Positions 6,543 through 35,938 of a DNA stretch of 64,000 nt are shown piece after piece (within the stretch, counting starts at the first letter, position 1; every line of letters begins with the position of its first letter). Source of the DNA: Lachnospiraceae bacterium (lineage in GTDB: Bacteria; Bacillota; Clostridia; Lachnospirales; Lachnospiraceae); contig JAFUXG010000059.1 of assembly GCA_017470935.1 (NCBI GenBank), positions 177,130 to 241,129 of the forward strand. Direction: 5' to 3'. The position numbers and the translations under genes were made by a program. Under the pieces are notes generated by a model that did no database searches, was not told where the DNA came from, and worked only from the letters and a program-made list of their open reading frames with translations.

Positions 6543-8639
6543 TCATAATGCTACCATATCATAGTTAAGCTTCTTAATAGTCTGAAGCGTCTTTGCTCTT
6601 AGCTCTTCTGCATCAAACAATGACAACAAGGTATCCTTATCAAACTTATTAGACATAAGCATCTCAACCCAATCCTCGATGTAATTCTTCACATACTCAA
6701 TATTCTCAGGTCTGCGATCCTTCAAGTTAGTCTCAATATTATTAATATGCTCAATTACCGTAGGCTCATTATTACCACTATTAACCGGCTTGTCATCAGA
6801 CTCATCAGAAAGTTCTATTACCTTTCCTGTCTTAGTGATAATGACCCTCTTGTTAGGCTTTGTTTCAGGTGTAACCTGGTCACCGCCTCTTACAATCAGC
6901 ATCTCAACAACTCTCACAAGACAAGCAACACTATATGTTGCCTCTTCGTCAGACTGTTTATCCCTATTCTTAAGCTTATACTGATTCCATAGCCACTCTG
7001 ACTTGCACAGCATCTCTTCGATTCCCGAATGATTATACATACGCATAAGATCAGAATTAGCCGCCGGAGCAGTAGCCTTTCCAAATCCGAACTTAGGAGC
7101 AGCTGTCTCATGCTTTTCTGCTGCGTAACGTGTAGGCAGATTAATCTTATTATATGTTTCACCAAACATCTTCTTTGCCTGCTCCATGCTGTAATCAGAA
7201 TTGATAATTGATTTGTCCTTGCCATTAAGGCTGTTCCTGATCATATCATCTGCAGCCAGAAATACAAGATGCTTCTGTCTATCCTCAAGAAGCTGCTTGA
7301 TCTCATAGCTGGTCTTACTCTTCTCAATAATAGTATTCTTACGGACCTTAAATGCCTTAATCTTTTCCTTCACACTGAAGAACATCTTCAGAAGAGAAGG
7401 ATTTGCATTAACGTAATTGCCAATCCATGTAAGCTCAACATATTGATGTTCGATCTTATTGGAAATCTCATATACATTATATCCATCAAAGATTACATTA
7501 AGGGTCGTATAAAGCAAGTCAAGTATCTCATACTTCTCTTCCCATGAGCGGGTAGAAAGATCCTGATTAACAAGCTGCTTAATCCCACACTCATAGAACA
7601 CAAGATTATATTCATACAGACCCTCAAAAACATTACTCTTATCACTAAGAGATGATCCCGAGCCCAGAATCTGAAGATTCTTCTTCATATTCGGTTCATC
7701 CTCGATGTACTTGTAAACCTTCTTAACAAATGCAGAAACTTCAACCAAAAGACTGTCAATCCTCTTATTATAAATATCCTGCTTTGAGATAGCAGAAATG
7801 ACAGATCTGCTTAGTACATTAGTATACTGTGTACTATTACAGTTACGGATAAGCTCCTTGAACTTCTCATATACCTTCATATTATCTACAGGTATATACT
7901 CAGCATTAAGCCCATAAAACTCAAAGGCCTTATCATAATCCTGCTTGCGTATAAATGAATTAAACAGCCCCATAGAGAACTGAATCTTATAATCATTGCC
8001 CACATGGGTATCCTCAACAAAGTAATCATAGAGAACCTCAAGATTATTGAGATATGCCTCTGAATTAGAAGCTGATGGTGGAAGATCCATCTCCATAACA
8101 ACATTGATAAGATCCATATAACCCATAACTGCCTTGTCATATGTAGCAGGACGGTCATCTGCATCTGTTATCTGATAACATGTATTAATAAGTAATGGCG
8201 CAACTCTCTCTCCAATCAACCTCATTGCCTCTCCAAAGCAATCAAGCTGATATAGATAGATCAGCCATATACTGTATCTATATATTCCTGTAGTATTGAT
8301 GATAGCATCAGTATCTGACGGTTCAATATCCCCATAAACAAATTTGAACAATGGCTCTATCCATTCCTCAATCTCATACTTCCCCGGTTTCTTGATGTTC
8401 TCATCAACGAATTCACCCAACTCATAAAGCTTAGTACATTGCGCCTTAACATCATCATCAACAAGCATTGATGAGAGATCAAAATTATGATCCTTAAGAT
8501 AATCAATTACTAACGCATAAAAACCCTCTTCAACCTGCTCATTCAAAAACCTGATGAGCATTCCCTTATTAGAGGATGCTGCAATCGAAATGATGTTAGT
8601 ATCATTCCCCCGAGTTACATTTGCCGGTAAATTCTGCAT
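6543..8639 (-). CDS. Unrecognised 698-residue, mostly helical protein
   Basis: I do not recognise a family. The start at 8639 (MQNLPANV) is supported by AAGGAGG seven to eight bases upstream; a longer frame reaching 8768 lacks such a site. There is no signal peptide or transmembrane segment, so it is probably cytoplasmic. The sequence looks alpha-helical throughout, with many Tyr/Leu/Ile/Glu repeats that could form a TPR-like solenoid. A flexible Gly/Ala/Pro patch occurs near 530-545 and an acidic linker near 620-640. It lies 68 bp upstream of the pilin gene on the same strand, so a link with the pilin is possible but only inferred. Confidence 0.8.
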   Translation of the reverse strand: MQNLPANVTRGNDTNIISIAASSNKGMLIRFLNEQVEEGFYALVIDYLKDHNFDLSSMLVDDDVKAQCTKLYELGEFVDENIKKPGKYEIEEWIEPLFKFVYGDIEPSDTDAIINTTGIYRYSIWLIYLYQLDCFGEAMRLIGERVAPLLINTCYQITDADDRPATYDKAVMGYMDLINVVMEMDLPPSASNSEAYLNNLEVLYDYFVEDTHVGNDYKIQFSMGLFNSFIRKQDYDKAFEFYGLNAEYIPVDNMKVYEKFKELIRNCNSTQYTNVLSRSVISAISKQDIYNKRIDSLLVEVSAFVKKVYKYIEDEPNMKKNLQILGSGSSLSDKSNVFEGLYEYNLVFYECGIKQLVNQDLSTRSWEEKYEILDLLYTTLNVIFDGYNVYEISNKIEHQYVELTWIGNYVNANPSLLKMFFSVKEKIKAFKVRKNTIIEKSKTSYEIKQLLEDRQKHLVFLAADDMIRNSLNGKDKSIINSDYSMEQAKKMFGETYNKINLPTRYAAEKHETAAPKFGFGKATAPAANSDLMRMYNHSGIEEMLCKSEWLWNQYKLKNRDKQSDEEATYSVACLVRVVEMLIVRGGDQVTPETKPNKRVIITKTGKVIELSDESDDKPVNSGNNEPTVIEHINNIETNLKDRRPENIEYVKNYIEDWVEMLMSNKFDKDTLLSLFDAEELRAKTLQTIKKLNYDMVAL

Positions 8640-8984
8640 TGTAACGCCTCCTTCTTGTCTCTCACTTATTGCGAAGTCTATATCTAAAAAGCCGCTTAAA
8701 ATACATATTACAATTATATTCTGACCATACTTAGATTGTTCAACTTGTTTGAAATATATAAACTTCACCTAGATAATTCATATAATATCACAATATTTAC
8801 CCTTTTACAACCTAAATTTTCTTTGATTTCAGTTATTTTTACATATTCTCATTGTATATTTTCAACAAAGTGATTGCTTTTTCTTATGCAGCGTATTAAA
8901 ATAAGTACATATTGCAGCTGTTTGAATTATTAAAAAGAACATAGCTGATTAATATTATGAAAAAAGTAAAGGAGAATTGGTATT
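8640..8984. promoter_or_regulatory. Divergent intergenic region with a candidate plus-strand promoter
   Basis: This 345-bp AT-rich gap separates the minus-strand orphan gene from the plus-strand gene at 8985. A possible plus-strand promoter is TTGCTT (8874-8879), a 17-bp spacer and TAAAAT (8897-8902). I see no gene, repeat or riboswitch here. Confidence 0.4.
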
Positions 8985-9572
8985 ATGGGAAAAAGGAACA
9001 ATGGTCTTGGCAAATTGATTGCCTTTACAACAGCAGTGGCAGCTATAGGCGGAATATTCTATATTTTCCGTGACAAAATTAAAGAAAGCTCCATTTACAA
9101 GACAGCCTCTGACAAAGCCGAAGATATTTATGGCTCAGTTAAAGAAAAGATAAACAAGGATGAAGACTTCTTTTTCGATGATTGGGATGATGATTTTGAA
9201 GAATTTGAGGATACAGCATCAAATGATGATAATAACCGGGGAACAAACAATCGGGAATACACATCAATATCTTCTGTAAACAACGATATATTTGCACATA
9301 CAGCTTCTTTTAATGAGTCTGCCTCTGTCCCTGCTGAAGACATAGAGGCTAAAGCTTCAGCCCAGGATTCTGCCATAGATTTAACACAAGCTTCTACCGA
9401 AGCTTCAGATGTGAATACAGATTCGAATTTAACAGAAGAAATACCAACAATAGAGTTTAACACTTCATCGTATAGCCTTGAATCCATTCCAGAGGCTTAT
9501 GAAAACGAAGGCTTATCAGACACATCAGAGGATCCTGATGTCCTTGAGGATCAGGACAAGCTGGATTTCTAA
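8985..9572 (+). CDS. Small membrane-anchored acidic protein (YtxH-like layout)
   Basis: A 195-residue protein of unknown function. One hydrophobic segment (about 9-27, LIAFTTAVAAIGGIFYIF) is followed by a short basic stretch and then a long, strongly acidic, low-complexity tail rich in Asp, Glu, Ser and Thr (for example DDWDDDFEEFED). The layout resembles YtxH-type or other single-span envelope proteins, but there is no diagnostic motif. AAAGGAG with 9-nt spacing supports the start. It is followed 9 bp later by hslO, so the two form an operon. Confidence 0.75.
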   Translation: MGKRNNGLGKLIAFTTAVAAIGGIFYIFRDKIKESSIYKTASDKAEDIYGSVKEKINKDEDFFFDDWDDDFEEFEDTASNDDNNRGTNNREYTSISSVNNDIFAHTASFNESASVPAEDIEAKASAQDSAIDLTQASTEASDVNTDSNLTEEIPTIEFNTSSYSLESIPEAYENEGLSDTSEDPDVLEDQDKLDF

Positions 9573-9581
9573 GCAGGTAAT

Positions 9582-10466
9582 ATGGCGATGAATATTATGA
9601 AGGATACACTAATACAAGGAATGGCTGCAGATAATCAGGTAAGGTTTTTTGCAGCCTACACAAGAAAGCTTACAGAAACCGCAAGAGTATTTCATAACAC
9701 TAGTCCTGTAGCAACAGCAGCTCTTGGACGGTTACTTACTGCCGGTTCAATAATGGGAAGCATGTGCAAGAATGACTCTGACGTACTCACCATAAGAATA
9801 CAATGTACAGGTCCCATCGGAGGACTAATGGTTACAGCCAATTCAAAGGCAGAGGTCAAAGGCTTTGCTAACAATCCTAATGTTATGCTTCCACCAAGCA
9901 GGAAAGGAAAGCTTGATGTGGGCGGAGCTCTCGAAAACGGCGTTCTATCTGTCATTAAAGACATTGGATTAAAGGAGCCTTATGTGGGGCAATCCAATCT
10001 GATTTCAGGAGAAATTGCTGAGGATCTGACCTACTACTTTGCTACAAGCGAGCAAATACCAACCTCTGTAGCATTAGGCGTCCTTATGGACAAGAACAAC
10101 ACAGTCAAGCATGCAGGCGGATTTATTATCCAACTAATGCCCTTTGCTGATGAACAGATTATTTCCCATTTAGAATCGAGACTTAACGATTTTTCTTCTA
10201 TCACTTCCTTAATGGATAAAGGAATGACACCTTCTCAAATGATGGAGAAGCTGTTCGATGGATATAGCATTGAATTTACTAATGAAACCACCCCTCTTTA
10301 CAAATGCGACTGCTCAAAGGACAGAGTATATAAAGCGCTAATGAGTGTGGGCAGAAGAGACATAGAAGAAATGATTTCAGAAGGCAAGCCGATACAGGTT
10401 GAATGCCACTTCTGCGACAAGATATATAGCTTCGATATAGAAGAGCTCAAAGAAATGCTGGCATAA
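9582..10466 (+). CDS. hslO: Hsp33 redox-regulated chaperonin
   Basis: Hsp33 is a cytoplasmic holdase chaperone switched on by oxidation of four zinc-bound cysteines. The N-terminal core (DTLIQGMAADNQVRFFAAYT, then GRLLTAGSIMG) is typical. The C-terminal redox switch shows the CDC pair (about 242-244) and the CHFC pair (about 275-278), so all four zinc ligands are present. The length of 294 residues is normal. It is translationally close to the upstream membrane protein and is followed by a strong terminator. Confidence 0.96.
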   Translation: MAMNIMKDTLIQGMAADNQVRFFAAYTRKLTETARVFHNTSPVATAALGRLLTAGSIMGSMCKNDSDVLTIRIQCTGPIGGLMVTANSKAEVKGFANNPNVMLPPSRKGKLDVGGALENGVLSVIKDIGLKEPYVGQSNLISGEIAEDLTYYFATSEQIPTSVALGVLMDKNNTVKHAGGFIIQLMPFADEQIISHLESRLNDFSSITSLMDKGMTPSQMMEKLFDGYSIEFTNETTPLYKCDCSKDRVYKALMSVGRRDIEEMISEGKPIQVECHFCDKIYSFDIEELKEMLA

Positions 10467-10498
10467 CAAATCAGTCATATACTTTATAACAAAATAAG

Positions 10499-10552
10499 AC
10501 ACACATGCTTTGTCAAACTAACCCTTGATAAGCATGTGTGTTATTTTTTCTT
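10499..10552. terminator. Terminator after hslO (shared by the convergent gene)
   Basis: A perfect 12-bp stem (ACACACATGCTT, 10499-10510; AAGCATGTGTGT, 10530-10541) is followed by a run of Ts on the plus strand. The convergent minus-strand gene ends at 10555, so the hairpin may serve both. Confidence 0.85.
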
Positions 10553-10554
10553 TT

Positions 10555-12414
10555 TTATTGAGCAGCCGGCAAAGCACATGCTGCATCTGGCATATTATTA
10601 TAGACCGGAATATAGAATACCATAGTGTCTGACATAACACCTATGGCAGCATATGCTGCCCTGGTCGTTCTTCCCTCAGCCCATGGAGCTTGAACATTAG
10701 TCATATACTGGTGTGTATAAAGCCTGGTCTGATCAGAAGGATGAACATTAAACTTCTGAAAATACAAGGTATCTTGTCCTATTGCAATATAATTCTTTGC
10801 TATATATGATGCTCCACCTGTGATGGATTTATAAGGGGTTGTCCATGGTCTTCCATAGGTTGTTGCATTTGTGGAACCACCTTTAGCCCAAAGAAGTCCC
10901 TTAGCCACTGCGTTTGCCCCGTCAGAAGCTCCAATATTGTAGAAGTTATATATCCCTTCATACCCCTTGTATACACCTGATGTTGAATTAGACCCCTTTG
11001 CTCCAACCTCCTGTTTACATCTCGCTGCAAGGAAGTATGGATTAGCTCCAGAAGACTTACCTGCATCCATGAAGGCTTGAACAAAGCTTCCTGTTGCAGC
11101 CTGTCCGGTAGCTGAATCAATCACACTGTAGTTGCCACTCATAAATGTATCCTTTAATATACTTTCAACCACTGTGCTGCTTTGAGAATCATTATAGGAC
11201 AATGCCTCAAACTGGAATATATCAACATCATTCAGGAAGTTTCTTGGATCCATGTAATATGCAATGACCTCGGGCGCTGCACTGTACCAATTAGATCCGT
11301 CAAAAACCTTATAAGTATTGGTAGAGGAATCATACGCTCCTGGTGCTTTAGACAAATATGATAATGGTGCTAATGTCGCTGTACCCTTAGGATAGTTGCT
11401 TTGTATTGTATTCTTTCCTGCTTCGCTTTCTGCTGCTACCGCACCAGCCCAATCAAGACCTGTATTAACAGCAACAAAATTCCAGTTAGGATAACTTGCA
11501 TGCAGCGCATTAATATTAGCCTTATAGCTTTCTGGAAAAGCAGCCAATTGAGTATCATAGTCAATATCTGCCACCAATGTATCCTGGTTATCAACAGTTT
11601 TCTCTTCTTTTTTTTGTTCAGGCTTGCCAAAACTTATGTATTCCTTAGCAACATATCCAACAATATCCTTTGAATCATATGCAGCACTTATCTTATACCA
11701 ATTTCCTAATGTGGCTGTAACCGTAACAACTGTTCCCTTTGGAATACGAGCAACTATTGTGCTATCAGTAGATGCGTTTTCCCTTACATTGAGAAATGTA
11801 GTGACCTTATCATTAACATAAGCCTCTTTAGGTTCTTCTTCAACCTCCTTCTTAGGAAAATTAACATCTATATAGCTGCCGAGAACATATCCCGTCTTAG
11901 TCTTGCCGCCATAAGAAACCTTTATTTTATACCAATAATTTCCGGAGGTCTTTTTGATACTCAAAACAGTAGTTTCCGTCTTCTTTGGAATCTTCAACAA
12001 GGACTTTGCAGATGTCTTAGCCTTCTTCCTAACATTAAGGGATGAGGTAACCTTATTATTAACCACTCCCTTAGGCTTAGATACCTTTTTAACATATGCT
12101 GAACTGATGTAGCCTGTCTTTGTCTTTCCGCTCTCTATCTTCGCTTTACACTTATACCAGGTAACGCCACCATTTTTTACATATCCAAGTATTGTTACAC
12201 TGCTTCCGGCCGGTACCATTCCGTAGCTTTTATACTTAAGTCCGGCTTTCTTTCTAATGTTAACAGTTGTCTTTGTTGTTCCCGGATAAGAAATAACTGA
12301 CTTACAAGTTACAGCAGCTTCTGTTTCTATAGTCCCTAAGGGTGTAGCGAAGACAACAAGCATTAATATTAGAAAACACAGTGTTTTACAATGTTTATGT
12401 ACTCTATTGTTCAT
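10555..12414 (-). CDS. Secreted SH3-repeat cell-wall glucosaminidase-like protein
   Basis: A 619-residue secreted protein. The start ATG at 12414 is favoured over a GTG at 12423 that overlaps the AGGAG site. The order is a signal peptide (CFLILMLVVFATPLG, cleavage near TEAAV), three bacterial SH3 repeats (about 30-100, 110-190 and 200-265, each with NVRKKA/NVREN and YIS/YVK/YID motifs), a linker, and a C-terminal glucosaminidase-like catalytic region (about 290-600). The catalytic part shows NPYFLAARCKQEVGAKGS, with a likely catalytic Glu, and YNFYNIGASDG, as in LytD/Auto-type N-acetylglucosaminidases. It probably remodels peptidoglycan. It stands alone. Confidence 0.87.
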   Translation of the reverse strand: MNNRVHKHCKTLCFLILMLVVFATPLGTIETEAAVTCKSVISYPGTTKTTVNIRKKAGLKYKSYGMVPAGSSVTILGYVKNGGVTWYKCKAKIESGKTKTGYISSAYVKKVSKPKGVVNNKVTSSLNVRKKAKTSAKSLLKIPKKTETTVLSIKKTSGNYWYKIKVSYGGKTKTGYVLGSYIDVNFPKKEVEEEPKEAYVNDKVTTFLNVRENASTDSTIVARIPKGTVVTVTATLGNWYKISAAYDSKDIVGYVAKEYISFGKPEQKKEEKTVDNQDTLVADIDYDTQLAAFPESYKANINALHASYPNWNFVAVNTGLDWAGAVAAESEAGKNTIQSNYPKGTATLAPLSYLSKAPGAYDSSTNTYKVFDGSNWYSAAPEVIAYYMDPRNFLNDVDIFQFEALSYNDSQSSTVVESILKDTFMSGNYSVIDSATGQAATGSFVQAFMDAGKSSGANPYFLAARCKQEVGAKGSNSTSGVYKGYEGIYNFYNIGASDGANAVAKGLLWAKGGSTNATTYGRPWTTPYKSITGGASYIAKNYIAIGQDTLYFQKFNVHPSDQTRLYTHQYMTNVQAPWAEGRTTRAAYAAIGVMSDTMVFYIPVYNNMPDAACALPAAQ

Positions 12415-12555
12415 CCTTTGCACTCTCCTAATAATAGTATAATAACGTTCAAATTAACATAACATAGTAACATAATACAATATAACAAAGACTTTTTCAA
12501 CCAAAATATGTATTTTTTTAAAAAAAATTTAACAATTATGTAATCTTTATGGAAA

Positions 12556-13437
12556 CTATTTATCCAAAACAGTTTGTCTTGTGTATAAAATATCATACTC
12601 ATCCTTGCCATCCTGATCGGTGGGATATATATCAAGAAACTGTTTAACCTTTTCAAATGCTGTATTATAATCCTTTATCTTCTCATAGTACACAATCTCG
12701 TCAAATAATATTTCTTTAATACTTGACTGATCCTCTATTGTTTTACCTGTTTCAATGTATGTAAGTGCGTTTTCCAAATCATTTTTATCAAGGGAAAGTG
12801 CCGCATACTGGGCATACATAAAGCTGTTCATTTCATTGTTCTGAAGGAAAATGTTGTAATAAATCTGCATATTATCATAATCCCCAAGCTGACCATAACA
12901 GCTTCCCACATATAAAACTAAATCCCTGTACCCATCCTCATAGGCCTTCTGCAATTTGGGAAGTGCTTGTCTGTAGTCCTTCCATTTATATAGCATTAGA
13001 CCATTTGCAATATTTTCAAGATATTTTACATTATCATCCGGCTCATCTGACCAAAACAATATTTTCTCATATTCATAAACTGCCATTTCATATTCTTCCA
13101 AATTTACATAGCAGTCTGCGAGATACATCCTTATATCATTATCAAACTTATTAATAAATGGGAGTTGCGGCTTTAATGCTTCTTCAAATAGACTAACGGC
13201 ACCTTGATAGTCACCGTCGTCATATACAGCCAAAGCCTTTGTTTTAAAATTATATTTTGAGCCATAGGAAAAAAAATAAATGAATACAAGAGCAGCAAAT
13301 GCAATTCCCATTAGCTTTAATATTCCTAAGACTGTAAATGGTTTATTCTTTTTTCTATTTTTTTTAGCTTTATTATAATTAGATATTTCATATATGCCAT
13401 ACTTATCACGTTTATTACGTCTTTTTCCCGAAGCCAT
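12556..13437 (-). CDS. Membrane-anchored TPR protein
   Basis: A 293-residue protein with a basic, Lys/Arg/Asn-rich cytoplasmic N-terminus (1-33), one transmembrane helix (about 38-60, VLGILKLMGIAFAALVFIYF) and a series of tetratricopeptide-like repeats (for example ALAVYDDGDYQGAVSLFEEAL, NLEEYEMAVYEYEKIL and KDYNTAFEKVKQFLDIYP). TPR domains mediate protein contacts; the partner is unknown. The start follows a GAGG site. The gene sits upstream of the SH3 hydrolase on the same strand, 141 bp away, so co-expression is possible. Confidence 0.8.
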   Translation of the reverse strand: MASGKRRNKRDKYGIYEISNYNKAKKNRKKNKPFTVLGILKLMGIAFAALVFIYFFSYGSKYNFKTKALAVYDDGDYQGAVSLFEEALKPQLPFINKFDNDIRMYLADCYVNLEEYEMAVYEYEKILFWSDEPDDNVKYLENIANGLMLYKWKDYRQALPKLQKAYEDGYRDLVLYVGSCYGQLGDYDNMQIYYNIFLQNNEMNSFMYAQYAALSLDKNDLENALTYIETGKTIEDQSSIKEILFDEIVYYEKIKDYNTAFEKVKQFLDIYPTDQDGKDEYDILYTRQTVLDK

Positions 13438-13476
13438 ATCTAAACCTCACAACAAATACTATAATCTTTCAATAAT

Positions 13477-13573
13477 CATTATTATACGTCGACTATCGTC
13501 TCCGTATGGGCATTCCCAAAATATCTTCGATTGCATGCAAGCATGCACCGAAGCCACTTTGCCCATTATTATA
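13477..13573 (+). repeat. Dispersed palindromic repeat, copy C
   Basis: Well-preserved copy. It contains CGTCGACTATCGTCTCCGTA, ATTCCCAAAATATCTTCGATTG, an inner palindrome TGCATGCAAGCATGCA, and CACTTTGCCCATTATTATA. The 10-mer CATTATTATA occurs at both ends as a direct repeat. It lies in the gap between carD and the TPR gene. Confidence 0.7.
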
Positions 13574-13594
13574 TCTCAGTATCCCTATAAAGTC

Positions 13595-13620
13595 AAAAGA
13601 ACCGATAACAATACCGGTTC
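13595..13620 (-). terminator. Weak terminator after carD
   Basis: A short inverted repeat (GAACCG / CGGTTC, 10-nt loop) is followed on the minus strand by TTTT. It lies about 45 bp beyond the carD stop. Confidence 0.5.
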
Positions 13621-13665
13621 CTTTAACATTTTACAAATCATTAAGTTACTAATAAAAACTGACAG

Positions 13666-14187
13666 TCATGACGCAGAAGCCATCTCCTTAAGAGCTATCC
13701 GACGCTCTACATAATCCTCAACCTCATCCTTAGCAAGCTTAAGACTTACTGCAAACTCACCATAAAGGTTGTCCTTTGCCTGCTTCAAATAACGCTCGTC
13801 ACATGCTGACATCTTCTTACCTGCAGCAAGACGCTCTTCCCTTCTTCTAAGGACAGTGTTGATAATACGGATAAATTCCCGACAATCACATGACTTAATT
13901 GCTTCCTTGTACGCCAGTTCCCGTTTCTTGTCATCTGTAACGACAATCTCTTCAATATCTCTCATCTCATCAATAAGATTACAGGCTTCCTGTTTACTGA
14001 TAACAGAACGTAACACAACCTTCTTGTTGTCCACCGGGGTAAACACCTGACTACCTCTTGTGTAAAGCGGTAACAATGTATAATACTGCTTATCGCTTTC
14101 CACGCCACCGAGTTCCATTGTTCCAATCTTCTCGACCCTGCATACGCCGTTAGCACCGTTAACGACATAGTCACCGACTTTAAACAT
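13666..14187 (-). CDS. CarD/CdnL-family RNA polymerase-binding regulator
   Basis: A 173-residue protein. The N-terminal RNA polymerase interaction domain starts MFKVGDYVVNGANGVCRVEK and is followed by a helical C-terminal region rich in Lys, Glu and Arg. Members bind the RNAP beta subunit and stabilise promoter open complexes at rRNA and other promoters. The start at 14187 is chosen because GAGGAG lies just upstream and the family begins at this point; a 24-codon upstream extension is not conserved. The gene has a 356-bp AT-rich upstream region of its own. Confidence 0.9.
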   Translation of the reverse strand: MFKVGDYVVNGANGVCRVEKIGTMELGGVESDKQYYTLLPLYTRGSQVFTPVDNKKVVLRSVISKQEACNLIDEMRDIEEIVVTDDKKRELAYKEAIKSCDCREFIRIINTVLRRREERLAAGKKMSACDERYLKQAKDNLYGEFAVSLKLAKDEVEDYVERRIALKEMASAS

Positions 14188-33150: not shown

Positions 33151-35415
33151 TTATTTCTTTATTTTTACTTTCTTAACCGCGCTCCACTTTCCATATACTT
33201 TTGTATTTTGTGAATCAGTATTATATGCTCTTACCTTCACATAATATGTCTTACCCTTCTTCAGCTTCTTAGCAGTAAACGATACCTCTGACGAAGATGT
33301 TATATCTTTTGTTTTCTTGCTCTTAGTGAATTTCTTATTAAGCGCATACTTCACTTCATAACCCTTTACATCATTAACCTTCTTCCAAATAACCACAAAG
33401 GCTTTTGACTTATTATTCTTTACAGAAGCTATCTTTGCCTTTGCAGGTACAGTAACTTTTTCTTCCGTTGTCAGTTGTTCAGTAGATGCCTGCTGTTGTA
33501 CCGACTGCTGTGTTGACTGTTGCTGTTGTGTTGGTGCTTGTTGATTAGTTGTATTATGATCATTTGTTTCCTGTTTCTCTTTTTCTGCTTTAACCGCTTC
33601 CTCCTTTGTCTGCTTTTCAATCTCTGCAAGTTTTGCTTCAGCAGACTGAAGTACACTATAATTTGTCACCTTATCTTTAGCATTTTCAGACAATGCATTA
33701 TATGCCGCTCTTGCTGTCTCAATCGCAGCCTTGCTGTCCTTTGTTACGTCTCCGATTAAAGATATAAGACCAATCACTGAATTTGCCTCTGTCTGCGCCT
33801 CTATATTCTCAGACGTATCATCACTATCTGACGACACTATACCGACAGGCTTTACATATGAAGATGATAGATTAACATGTAAAACGGGACGCACAGCATG
33901 ATCATCGAAGTAGACACCACCGCCATAGTCTCGGCCACAGCAGAAGGAATCTACTCTTGCCGCAAAAGTAGTTTCAAAACCGGGTGAGCGCAGCCACCAG
34001 AAACAGTTGCCGACAGAGCTGCCACTGTTAAAATCTGCTCCATTAAGTTTTGCATAATCCGTTGCTTTTGCCTGTCTTGTTAAACTATCTGTATTGAACG
34101 TTTCATCAAAACCATATTCTGCTTTTGATGCCTCTGCTATGGATAACAGATACAACTTATCCTTGGTCGCCTCTCCACCTTCCGTATTATATGTCGGATT
34201 ATCAGGATTTTCCACTGTTGTCTCTATAATTGCACTTTGCTCTTCACTGTTAAATGCCTCATTAATGAATGCACTATCATTTGCATAATTATCTGTTCCG
34301 TTAAGCCAGTCACGAAGCGTACATGTCTCCCATGTACACTCTGCATACTCTGTATTGTACGGCTTACAGTCAAGTGCCTTATCGGCTATAACCAATGCAT
34401 CATTACCATCTACAGAAAGTACCCTCCACTCTATAGGTTTTTTATTAAAAACCGCCTTCTGTTTGTATTTACCAAAGTACACGCAGTCCCATGTTGTAAC
34501 ATCTCCGGACTTTATTGGCGTCTTATAGTCATTTTTGTTTTTTGTGGTGTTTGTTCCTTCTGTTACATTTCCATCTGACGTTACTGTACCAGCATACTTT
34601 ACATACGAAGATGATAGATTAATATGCAAAGCAGGACGCACCGCGTGCCTATGCATATCGTCGCTGACACCATCACCATTGTCGAGGCACCAGCCACCGA
34701 CATCAACGCTTGCCGCAAAAGAAGGTTCATGACCGGGTGAACGCAGCCACCACCAGTAACAGTTGCCGGCAGTGCTACCACTTTTAATGAAATATGCATT
34801 GTTCAGTTTTGCATAATCCGTTGCTTTTGCCCATCTTGTTGAACTATTCATATTTAACGTTTCGTCAAAACCATATCCTGCTTTTGATGCCTCTGCTATG
34901 GATAACAGATACACCTTATCCTTGGTCGCCTCTCCACCTTCCGTATTATATGTCGGATTATCAGGATTTTCCACTGTTGTCTCTATAATTGCACTTTGCT
35001 CATCAGCGGTAAATGCCACATTAATAAATGCATTATCATTTGCATAATCATCTGTTCCGTTAAGCCAGTCGCGAAGCGTGCATGTCTCCCATGTACACTC
35101 TGCATACCCTGTATTGTACGGCTTACAGTCAAGTGCCTCATCCGCAAGAAGAAAAGCATTACCTTCGCTATCAATATCAAGTATCCGCCACTTGATTGGC
35201 TCCGCTTCTAACTCTGCATCCTGATAATAGTTTCCAAATGTTATCTTATCCCATGTTACCGTTCCGTCATCTGCAATTCTAGGATTGCTGATAGTATCTA
35301 TCTCCGCCTTCGCTGTAATTTTTCCTATCACGACTGATAACATGGAAAAAACCATTAAAAATACTAGTGTACCCGATGTTATTTTTTTTATACATTTATG
35401 CCTTTTTTTCTTCAA
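33151..35415 (-). CDS. Secreted protein with a duplicated DUF6273-like domain and C-terminal FN3-like domain
   Basis: A 754-residue exported protein. The start codon is TTG at 35415, supported by AAGGAGG nine bases upstream; no closer ATG exists. The order is a signal peptide (about 13-36), domain copy 1 (about 55-273) and copy 2 (about 308-522), each with CKPYNT, TCTLRDWLNG and LRSPG motifs and ending HAVRP..H(I/V)NLSSSYVK. Then comes a helical FIVAR-like region (about 545-600), a Gln/Thr linker and an FN3-like domain (about 660-750). There is no sortase or membrane anchor. The two copies are nearly identical except in the segment after LRSPG. The XRE gene is divergent upstream and probably regulates it. 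Confidence 0.88.
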   Translation of the reverse strand: MKKKRHKCIKKITSGTLVFLMVFSMLSVVIGKITAKAEIDTISNPRIADDGTVTWDKITFGNYYQDAELEAEPIKWRILDIDSEGNAFLLADEALDCKPYNTGYAECTWETCTLRDWLNGTDDYANDNAFINVAFTADEQSAIIETTVENPDNPTYNTEGGEATKDKVYLLSIAEASKAGYGFDETLNMNSSTRWAKATDYAKLNNAYFIKSGSTAGNCYWWWLRSPGHEPSFAASVDVGGWCLDNGDGVSDDMHRHAVRPALHINLSSSYVKYAGTVTSDGNVTEGTNTTKNKNDYKTPIKSGDVTTWDCVYFGKYKQKAVFNKKPIEWRVLSVDGNDALVIADKALDCKPYNTEYAECTWETCTLRDWLNGTDNYANDSAFINEAFNSEEQSAIIETTVENPDNPTYNTEGGEATKDKLYLLSIAEASKAEYGFDETFNTDSLTRQAKATDYAKLNGADFNSGSSVGNCFWWLRSPGFETTFAARVDSFCCGRDYGGGVYFDDHAVRPVLHVNLSSSYVKPVGIVSSDSDDTSENIEAQTEANSVIGLISLIGDVTKDSKAAIETARAAYNALSENAKDKVTNYSVLQSAEAKLAEIEKQTKEEAVKAEKEKQETNDHNTTNQQAPTQQQQSTQQSVQQQASTEQLTTEEKVTVPAKAKIASVKNNKSKAFVVIWKKVNDVKGYEVKYALNKKFTKSKKTKDITSSSEVSFTAKKLKKGKTYYVKVRAYNTDSQNTKVYGKWSAVKKVKIKK
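33850..34494 (-). repeat. Internal domain repeat, copy 2
   Basis: Second copy of the ~650-bp internal repeat in the secreted protein, about 760 bp from copy 1. The central ~270 bp (34109-34380) is almost identical in DNA to 34869-35142, which indicates recent duplication or gene conversion. Confidence 0.85.
33883..34002 (-). other. Candidate variable segment of copy 2 (after WWLRSPG)
   Basis: Codons for residues 472-511. They differ strongly from the equivalent segment of copy 1 while the flanks stay almost identical. Many differences are at codon positions 1 and 2 with the third-position T or C kept. Confidence 0.55.
34597..35253 (-). repeat. Internal domain repeat, copy 1
   Basis: First copy of the ~650-bp internal repeat (residues about 55-273 of the secreted protein). 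It pairs with 33850-34494. Confidence 0.85.
34627..34755 (-). other. Candidate variable segment of copy 1 (after WWLRSPG)
   Basis: Codons for residues 221-263, equivalent to 33883-34002. This copy is longer by an extra Trp and by three codons before the conserved HAVRP end. Confidence 0.55.
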
Positions 35416-35811: not shown

Positions 35812-35816
35812 ATCCA

Positions 35817-35938
35817 CATTTTTTCTACGCACTTTTCAATACTATTCTACATTTTTTCCACGCACTTTTCAATACTATTCTACATTTTTTCCATGCACTT
35901 TTCAATGCTATTTTACATTTTTTCCACTCATTTTTATA
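35817..35938. repeat. 33-bp tandem repeat (about 3.7 units)
   Basis: Units start at 35817 (32 bp), 35849 (33 bp), 35882 (33 bp) and 35915 (partial). They share ACATTTTTTCCACGCAC and TTTTCAATACTATTCT. Units 1-2 are nearly identical and later ones drift. They lie in non-coding DNA after the XRE terminator. Confidence 0.85.

What the first reader, a model, noticed from the sequence alone, without database searches (positions are those of the whole stretch)
33883..34755. Segments after the LRSPG motif show a DGR-like hypervariation pattern
In the secreted protein the two domain copies are almost identical before this segment and again at the HAVRP..LSSSYVK end, but differ strongly in the ~40 residues after (W)WWLRSPG. 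Aligned codons include CAT/TTT, CCT/ACT, TCT/ACT, AAT/TAT, AGC/TAC, GAC/TTC and GTC/TCC. The changes are mainly in codon positions 1 and 2 while the third-position pyrimidine stays, the opposite of ordinary drift. Diversity-generating retroelements mutate AAY codons to NNY in C-type-lectin-fold surface proteins and leave this footprint, and gut bacteria use surface proteins with such domains. Some pairs (AGC/AGA, GTT/GTA, GGT/GGC) do not fit. No reverse transcriptase or template repeat is in the window, so the call is an inference from the substitution pattern.
Basis: partly seen in the sequence, partly recalled or inferred. Interest (0 to 1): 0.75.

Follow-up and report, generated by a model that had tools for sequence, protein, structure and literature searches.

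The report
Orphaned retroelement-target surface protein, fading footprint
A secreted protein, probably of a gut or rumen Lachnospiraceae bacterium, carries two copies of a lectin-like domain that in relatives is rewritten by a mutation-making retroelement; here no such retroelement was found and the tell-tale mutation pattern is not visible, so it looks like a protein left behind after its diversity machine was lost.

Summary
The gene (33151-35415, minus) encodes a signal-peptide-like start, two DUF6273 domains, a linker and fn3. The stretch after LRSPG is hypervariable between species. Relatives support the DGR idea. Apparently intact chromosomal DGRs (Avd-template-RT-target) of other Lachnospiraceae rewrite this DUF6273 segment from an Asn-rich template, mostly at adenines. 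Two same-genus genomes carry a truncated Avd-RT or a broken RT beside DUF6273 genes. Five of 17 tandem domain pairs of the genus show a fresh footprint; the window's pair does not. Its differences lie mostly on template-Asn columns (11 of 17 versus 4 of 14, p=0.049). No RT, Avd or template was found in the window's genome (about 78% complete). Best reading: an orphaned, ageing DGR target. A DGR in unassembled sequence, or plain diversifying selection, remain possible. DUF6273 as a DGR target is already published for phages.

The parts
33151..35415 (-). secreted protein, 754 codons (TTG start): signal-peptide-like N terminus, 2x DUF6273, Q/T-rich linker, fn3
   Evidence: ORF; Pfam PF19789 (E 6.4e-56, 2 stretches) and PF00041; signal peptide read by eye
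34597..35244 (-). DUF6273 copy 1 (residues 58-273)
33850..34482 (-). DUF6273 copy 2 (residues 312-522)
34645..34731 (-). variable segment 1 (residues 229-257)
   Evidence: codon table; aligned to five template repeats of other genomes
33898..33978 (-). variable segment 2 (residues 480-506)
   Evidence: codon table
34801..35136 (-). part of copy 1 homogenised with copy 2 (about residues 94-205)
   Evidence: 10-11 nt differences per 159-168 within the window, 21-46 to G013
34042..34377 (-). part of copy 2 homogenised with copy 1 (about residues 347-458)
33211..33426 (-). C-terminal fn3 domain; similar end in the DGR target of Roseburia sp. (L166)

Best explanation
The protein is an orphaned target of a diversity-generating retroelement. 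Shown: in related bacteria DUF6273 segments of this kind match an Asn(AAY)-rich template from which they differ mostly at adenines; the template reads WWLRSPG-NN-x-NNA-x-NVNNNG and so on. Inferred: an ancestor of this gene was diversified the same way, and the cassette was then lost from this lineage, as it was partly lost in same-genus genomes G022 (Avd joined to the back half of the RT, no template on its 3.8-kb contig) and G025 (back-end of an RT with a stop). Since then the two variable segments have aged by ordinary substitution, third positions included, while gene conversion kept the middle of the two domains alike. The domain probably displays a ligand-binding face outside the cell (inferred from the published lectin-like fold and the signal-peptide-like start).
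For: Family: PF19789. Apparently intact cassettes with template: Roseburia sp. NALB_7861_19 (L166: Avd 7987-8433, TR from 8475, RT 8673-9851, target 9803-13864) and Lachnospiraceae bacterium MD308 (L228); TR-VR mismatches at A 19 of 43 and 19 of 38, at other bases 3 of 86 and 4 of 76. Other pairs: L192 22/36 vs 3/76, 17/33 vs 1/62, 6/14 vs 3/38; L162 14/25 and 11/25 vs 0/49 each; L111 19/38 vs 1/65; poorest L226 22/37 vs 16/77. The single DUF6273 of the L166 target aligns to both window copies (42%, 48%) and its end to the fn3 end (47%). Same genus: G022 Avd-RT ORF then a 2x DUF6273 + fn3 gene; G025 RT remnant with a stop just 5' of a DUF6273 gene. Of 17 adjacent domain pairs 5 have p<0.05, uncorrected (G011 12/9/0, G022 11/3/1, G001 10/7/2 and 13/15/6, G013 8/7/3). 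Two control subfamilies: segment not more variable than core. Window copies against G013 and G005 domains: changes lean to positions 1-2 relative to core in 6 pairs (p 0.0013-0.055). Window differences on template-Asn columns 11 of 17 versus 4 of 14, p=0.049; in 18 related domains diversity 0.88 versus 0.49, p=1.5e-4. No RT or Avd found in G000, nor in G005 (99% complete, six such domains in one contig).
Against: The window's own pair shows no codon-position bias and no excess third-base conservation; in the six cross-species pairs third-base retention is not significant either (p 0.075-0.72). Column tests that include the window are weak: p=0.13 with G013 alone (4 domains), 0.029 with two G005 domains added, 0.051 over 18 domains; another subfamily gives 0.023 with 5 domains but 0.58 with 12. 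All uncorrected. Surface selection could also pick the template-Asn columns. Some changes (GGC/TGC, TGG/TGT, CTC/CGA; GAA kept) do not fit adenine mutagenesis. No RT remnant lies beside this gene. In NCBIfam the G022 and L166 RTs score below every cut-off, with Drt3a or group II RT on top, and the Avd model is also below its cut-off; DGR type rests on 8ub7, PHROG Avd, Pfam bAvd (L166, above cut-off) and the TR/VR pairs. The lectin-like fold was not modelled.
Confidence: 0.6

Rival explanations
1. Never a DGR target: an exposed ligand-binding loop under ordinary diversifying selection, made conspicuous because gene conversion homogenised the middle of the two domains and stopped short of this segment.
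For: No position bias in the window pair; the N-terminal part, also outside the converted tract, differs even more (52 of 117 nt); no RT, Avd or template found.
Against: Same-genus proteins of the same architecture carry the footprint, and two genomes carry RT relics beside DUF6273 genes; template-Asn columns match the variable columns; two other DUF6273 subfamilies of the genus are not more variable there than in the core.
Confidence: 0.22
2. Active remote target: an intact DGR with a template for these segments sits in the part of the genome missing from the assembly.
For: Genome estimated 77.75% complete; one template can match several segments (L192: three VR-like segments in two ORFs, though its RT is now broken).
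Against: Two live VRs on one template should agree at third positions; here 9 of 28 differ. G005, 99% complete with six such domains in one contig, gave no RT or Avd match.
Confidence: 0.15
3. Assembly or recombination artefact in the repeated gene.
For: Tandem near-identical tracts can confuse short-read assembly (general knowledge).
Against: Open reading frame throughout; same two-domain layout in G013, G005 and own paralogues C7 and C39.
Confidence: 0.03

Closest known systems
Phage DGR targets with DUF6273: tentaclins and Faecalibacterium prophage targets (PMC10743442, PMC11792537; passages seen)
   Same: DUF6273 with a DGR variable region (at its C-terminal end in PMC11792537); Ig/fn3-type domains downstream in tentaclins; lectin-like fold by the models of PMC10743442
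   Different: those are phage DGR targets; here a chromosomal secreted protein with two DUF6273 copies and no RT found
Chromosomal Avd-TR-RT-DUF6273 cassettes of Lachnospiraceae found here (L166, L228)
   Same: same domain, similar fn3 end (L166), template matches the variable segment, signal-peptide-like target
   Different: no RT, Avd or TR found with the window gene, and its two segments differ at third positions too
DGR of Bordetella phage BPP-1 (RT entry 8ub7; that this entry is the BPP-1 RT is recalled)
   Same: closest solved relative by sequence of the G022 and L166 RTs; adenine-specific change of a lectin-type domain (recalled)
   Different: phage tail protein, not a bacterial surface protein
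IgA protease with N-terminal DUF6273 (9qa6; taken to be ThomasA of PMC12402451, an inference; passages seen)
   Same: DUF6273 in a secreted gut-bacterial protein; profile match
   Different: attached to an M64 peptidase; no DGR mentioned in the passages seen

Membership tests
DUF6273 (PF19789) | profile match above the curated cut-off | tested here: met
   189.3 bits against 23.5, two stretches
Diversity-generating retroelement system (active, in this genome) | DGR-type reverse transcriptase | tested here: not met
   0 matches in G000 with PF00078, the G022 RT (E<=1e-10) and the G015 RT; genome 77.75% complete, so absence is not proven
Diversity-generating retroelement system (active, in this genome) | template repeat near-identical to the VR outside adenines | tested here: not met
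Diversity-generating retroelement system (active, in this genome) | Avd accessory protein | tested here: not met
   matches in 1 of 26 genus genomes (G022), none in G000; the query missed an Avd-like ORF (by eye) in G015, so a divergent Avd could be missed
DGR target gene (past or present) | variation confined to codon positions set by template adenines, third base constant | tested here: inconclusive
   window pair 11/8/9, p 0.20-0.29; template-Asn columns 11/17 vs 4/14, p=0.049
DGR target gene (past or present) | lectin-like (CLec) fold around the VR | not testable with these tools
DGR target gene (past or present) | hypervariation among strains limited to the VR | not tested
   only one genome per species was available; between species the segment is 32-38% identical against 67-75% in the core (window versus G013)

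The most novel reading that the evidence does not exclude
Lachnospiraceae carry a chromosomal DGR lineage (Avd-TR-RT-secreted DUF6273 protein) that repeatedly dies by losing the template and the front of the RT, while its hypervariable target genes survive and multiply as RT-less orphans. The ratio of third-position to first/second-position changes between tandem copies then acts as a clock of time since the last rewriting, which would let fossil DGR targets be found in genomes that RT-based surveys score as having none.
Probability: 0.4. Interest if true: 0.62.

Novelty: new member of a known kind. Interest (0 to 1): 0.45.

Why it matters
A large 2021 DGR survey says its approach would not detect targets that are not next to the RT (PMC8144416, passage seen). 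A gene family whose members carry the template's pattern without an RT offers a way to recognise past diversification, to ask how long a diversified binding surface stays useful once frozen, and to find chromosomal, non-phage DGRs that rewrite secreted proteins of gut and rumen Lachnospiraceae.

Tried and rejected
Rejected: 'third-position pyrimidine is kept' as evidence inside the window. Synonymous-codon test for pyrimidine-ending codons in the variable columns: window copies p=0.076 and 0.16; the same test gives 0.98 and 0.81 for the G022 pair, whose footprint is clear, so it is a poor test as built. Same-genus G015 DGR: TR/VR pair, RT and an Avd-like ORF (by eye), but the target shows no DUF6273 motif and the neighbours look like phage tail genes by eye, so it was set aside. 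Phage collection: 2 of 50,697 records match domain copy 1, both at 27-29% identity. NCBIfam gave nothing for the window protein.

Dropped rows: one search kept 80 of 87 domain hits (7 did not reach the variable segment), from 22 of 26 genomes; could not place the segment in 2 pairs (G002) and reports 17. P values are uncorrected and the domains are related, so they are guides only. Segments already held in earlier loci were reused rather than fetched again. Literature searches made.

Full report
WHAT THE SEQUENCE SHOWS. The ORF at 33151-35415 (minus) encodes 754 codons: a basic then hydrophobic start like a signal peptide (by eye), two DUF6273 domains, a Q/T-rich linker and an fn3 domain. Neighbours are chromosomal genes: MMPL transporter, trypsin/PDZ protease, YbjQ, Uma2, a small HTH protein and CoA-activase genes.

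CHECK OF THE PATTERN. Codon by codon, the two copies differ at codon positions 1/2/3 by 11/8/9 in the variable segment (28 codons) and by 20/13/23 in the core (151 codons). Two thirds of random changes fall on positions 1 and 2, so there is no position bias. The middle of the domains is alike because of gene conversion: 10 of 168 nt differ between the copies in one part, against 44-46 of 168 to the G013 copies. In the N-terminal part copy 2 differs from G013 copy 2 by 14 of 117 nt and from its own sister copy by 52 of 117. When like copies are compared between species, the segment is still the fastest part: 34/78 and 38/81 nt, against 12-29% elsewhere.

COMPARISON WITH RELATIVES. Of the 26 genomes of the genus, 22 gave a hit to an Asn-rich template-like peptide (E<=10); the listed hits lie in open frames of 159 codons or more, and I saw no separate template. 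I compiled 80 DUF6273 domains. Among 17 adjacent pairs in one protein, five show a DGR footprint: G011 12/9/0, G022 11/3/1, G001 10/7/2 and 13/15/6, G013 8/7/3 (p 7e-5 to 0.025, uncorrected). Twelve do not, the window's pair (p=0.20) among them. Two other subfamilies serve as controls: in one the segment varies as the core does, in the other both are conserved. Column tests of third-base variability: clear for G022 plus G001 (p=5e-7), p=0.011 for G011 plus G003, and weak or absent in groups with the window (0.029, 0.051, 0.13) and in the largest set of another subfamily (0.58). With template repeats from other genomes aligned, the window's two copies differ at 11 of 17 template-Asn columns and at 4 of 14 other columns (p=0.049).

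THE MACHINE IN RELATIVES. RVT_1 matches occur in 17 of 26 genus genomes. RTs of DGR type, by my reading of motifs and by searches with two DGR RTs, were seen in three: G015 (a DGR with another target), G022 and G025. I did not classify every RT, and a 58-residue fragment in G001, under the cut-off, stays open. In G022 the ORF begins with an Avd-like domain (phrog_3206, E 2e-10; NF033474, under its cut-off) and continues as the back half of an RT whose best solved relative is 8ub7; NCBIfam's best RT match, under its cut-off, was Drt3a. A 2x DUF6273 + fn3 gene follows. In G025 an RT back-end with a stop lies just upstream of a DUF6273 gene. In other Lachnospiraceae the order Avd-TR-RT-target is present with a near-complete RT: L166 (Roseburia sp. 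NALB_7861_19) and L228 (Lachnospiraceae bacterium MD308), next to chromosomal genes (NuoF-like; release factor 3). TR-VR mismatches fall mostly on adenines. Of 21 distinct loci compared with the L166 cassette (23 entries, two of them repeats), 3 have a near-complete RT (L166, L228 and L113, the last in what looks like a prophage), 13 a truncated or broken one, 1 only an Avd piece, and 4 are cut by contig ends (tblastn E<=1e-3). The loci were picked because they had RT or Avd hits, and not all were checked for a DUF6273 neighbour, so these are not population frequencies.

EXPLANATION. The simplest account that fits is a former DGR target whose cassette has been lost, with variable segments that have aged since (confidence 0.6). 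The rivals are plain diversifying selection (0.22) and a live DGR in missing sequence (0.15). Shown: domain family, template in relatives, relics in the genus, no cassette found in this assembly, no fresh footprint. Inferred: that this particular gene was once rewritten, and its binding role.

KNOWN OR NEW. DUF6273 as a DGR target with a C-type-lectin-like fold is published for phages (passages), where similar genes in bacterial genomes were noted as 'probably in prophages'. The window protein is a new, chromosomal and apparently RT-less member. The recurrent decay of the cassette beside its targets, and the use of codon-position ratios to date it, are my inference; five literature searches did not show them in the listings or passages I saw, and I claim no more than that.

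Noticed in passing
L166:7987-13864; L228:708-7326: Apparently intact chromosomal DGRs in Lachnospiraceae, order Avd-TR-RT-large secreted DUF6273 target of about 1350-1590 aa, next to housekeeping genes.
   Followed up: partly
L051:120-1172 (G022:C36): In-frame Avd-RT fusion lacking the template and the front part of the RT; RT back-ends that begin near the YxDD motif recur elsewhere (L111, L214, L190, L180, L063). Decay or a reduced functional form is open.
   Followed up: partly
L110:4185-7154 (G015:C15): Same-genus DGR with RT, template and an Avd-like ORF whose target shows no DUF6273 motif, among what look like phage tail genes (by eye).
   Followed up: partly
L130 (G011:C32:138000-140600) and L141 (G003:C200): DUF6273 domains with the cleanest footprint of the genus (12/9/0 in the G011 tandem pair); the one RVT_1 match in G011 is not of evident DGR type and G003 has none.
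   Followed up: partly
L192:163-8630 (Eubacterium sp. S35_Bin1): Template and three VR-like segments in two neighbouring ORFs, with an RT broken into several frames.
   Followed up: partly
window 35816-35935: 33-bp tandem repeat (3.6 copies, 91% match) upstream of the gene, beyond a small HTH gene.
   Followed up: no
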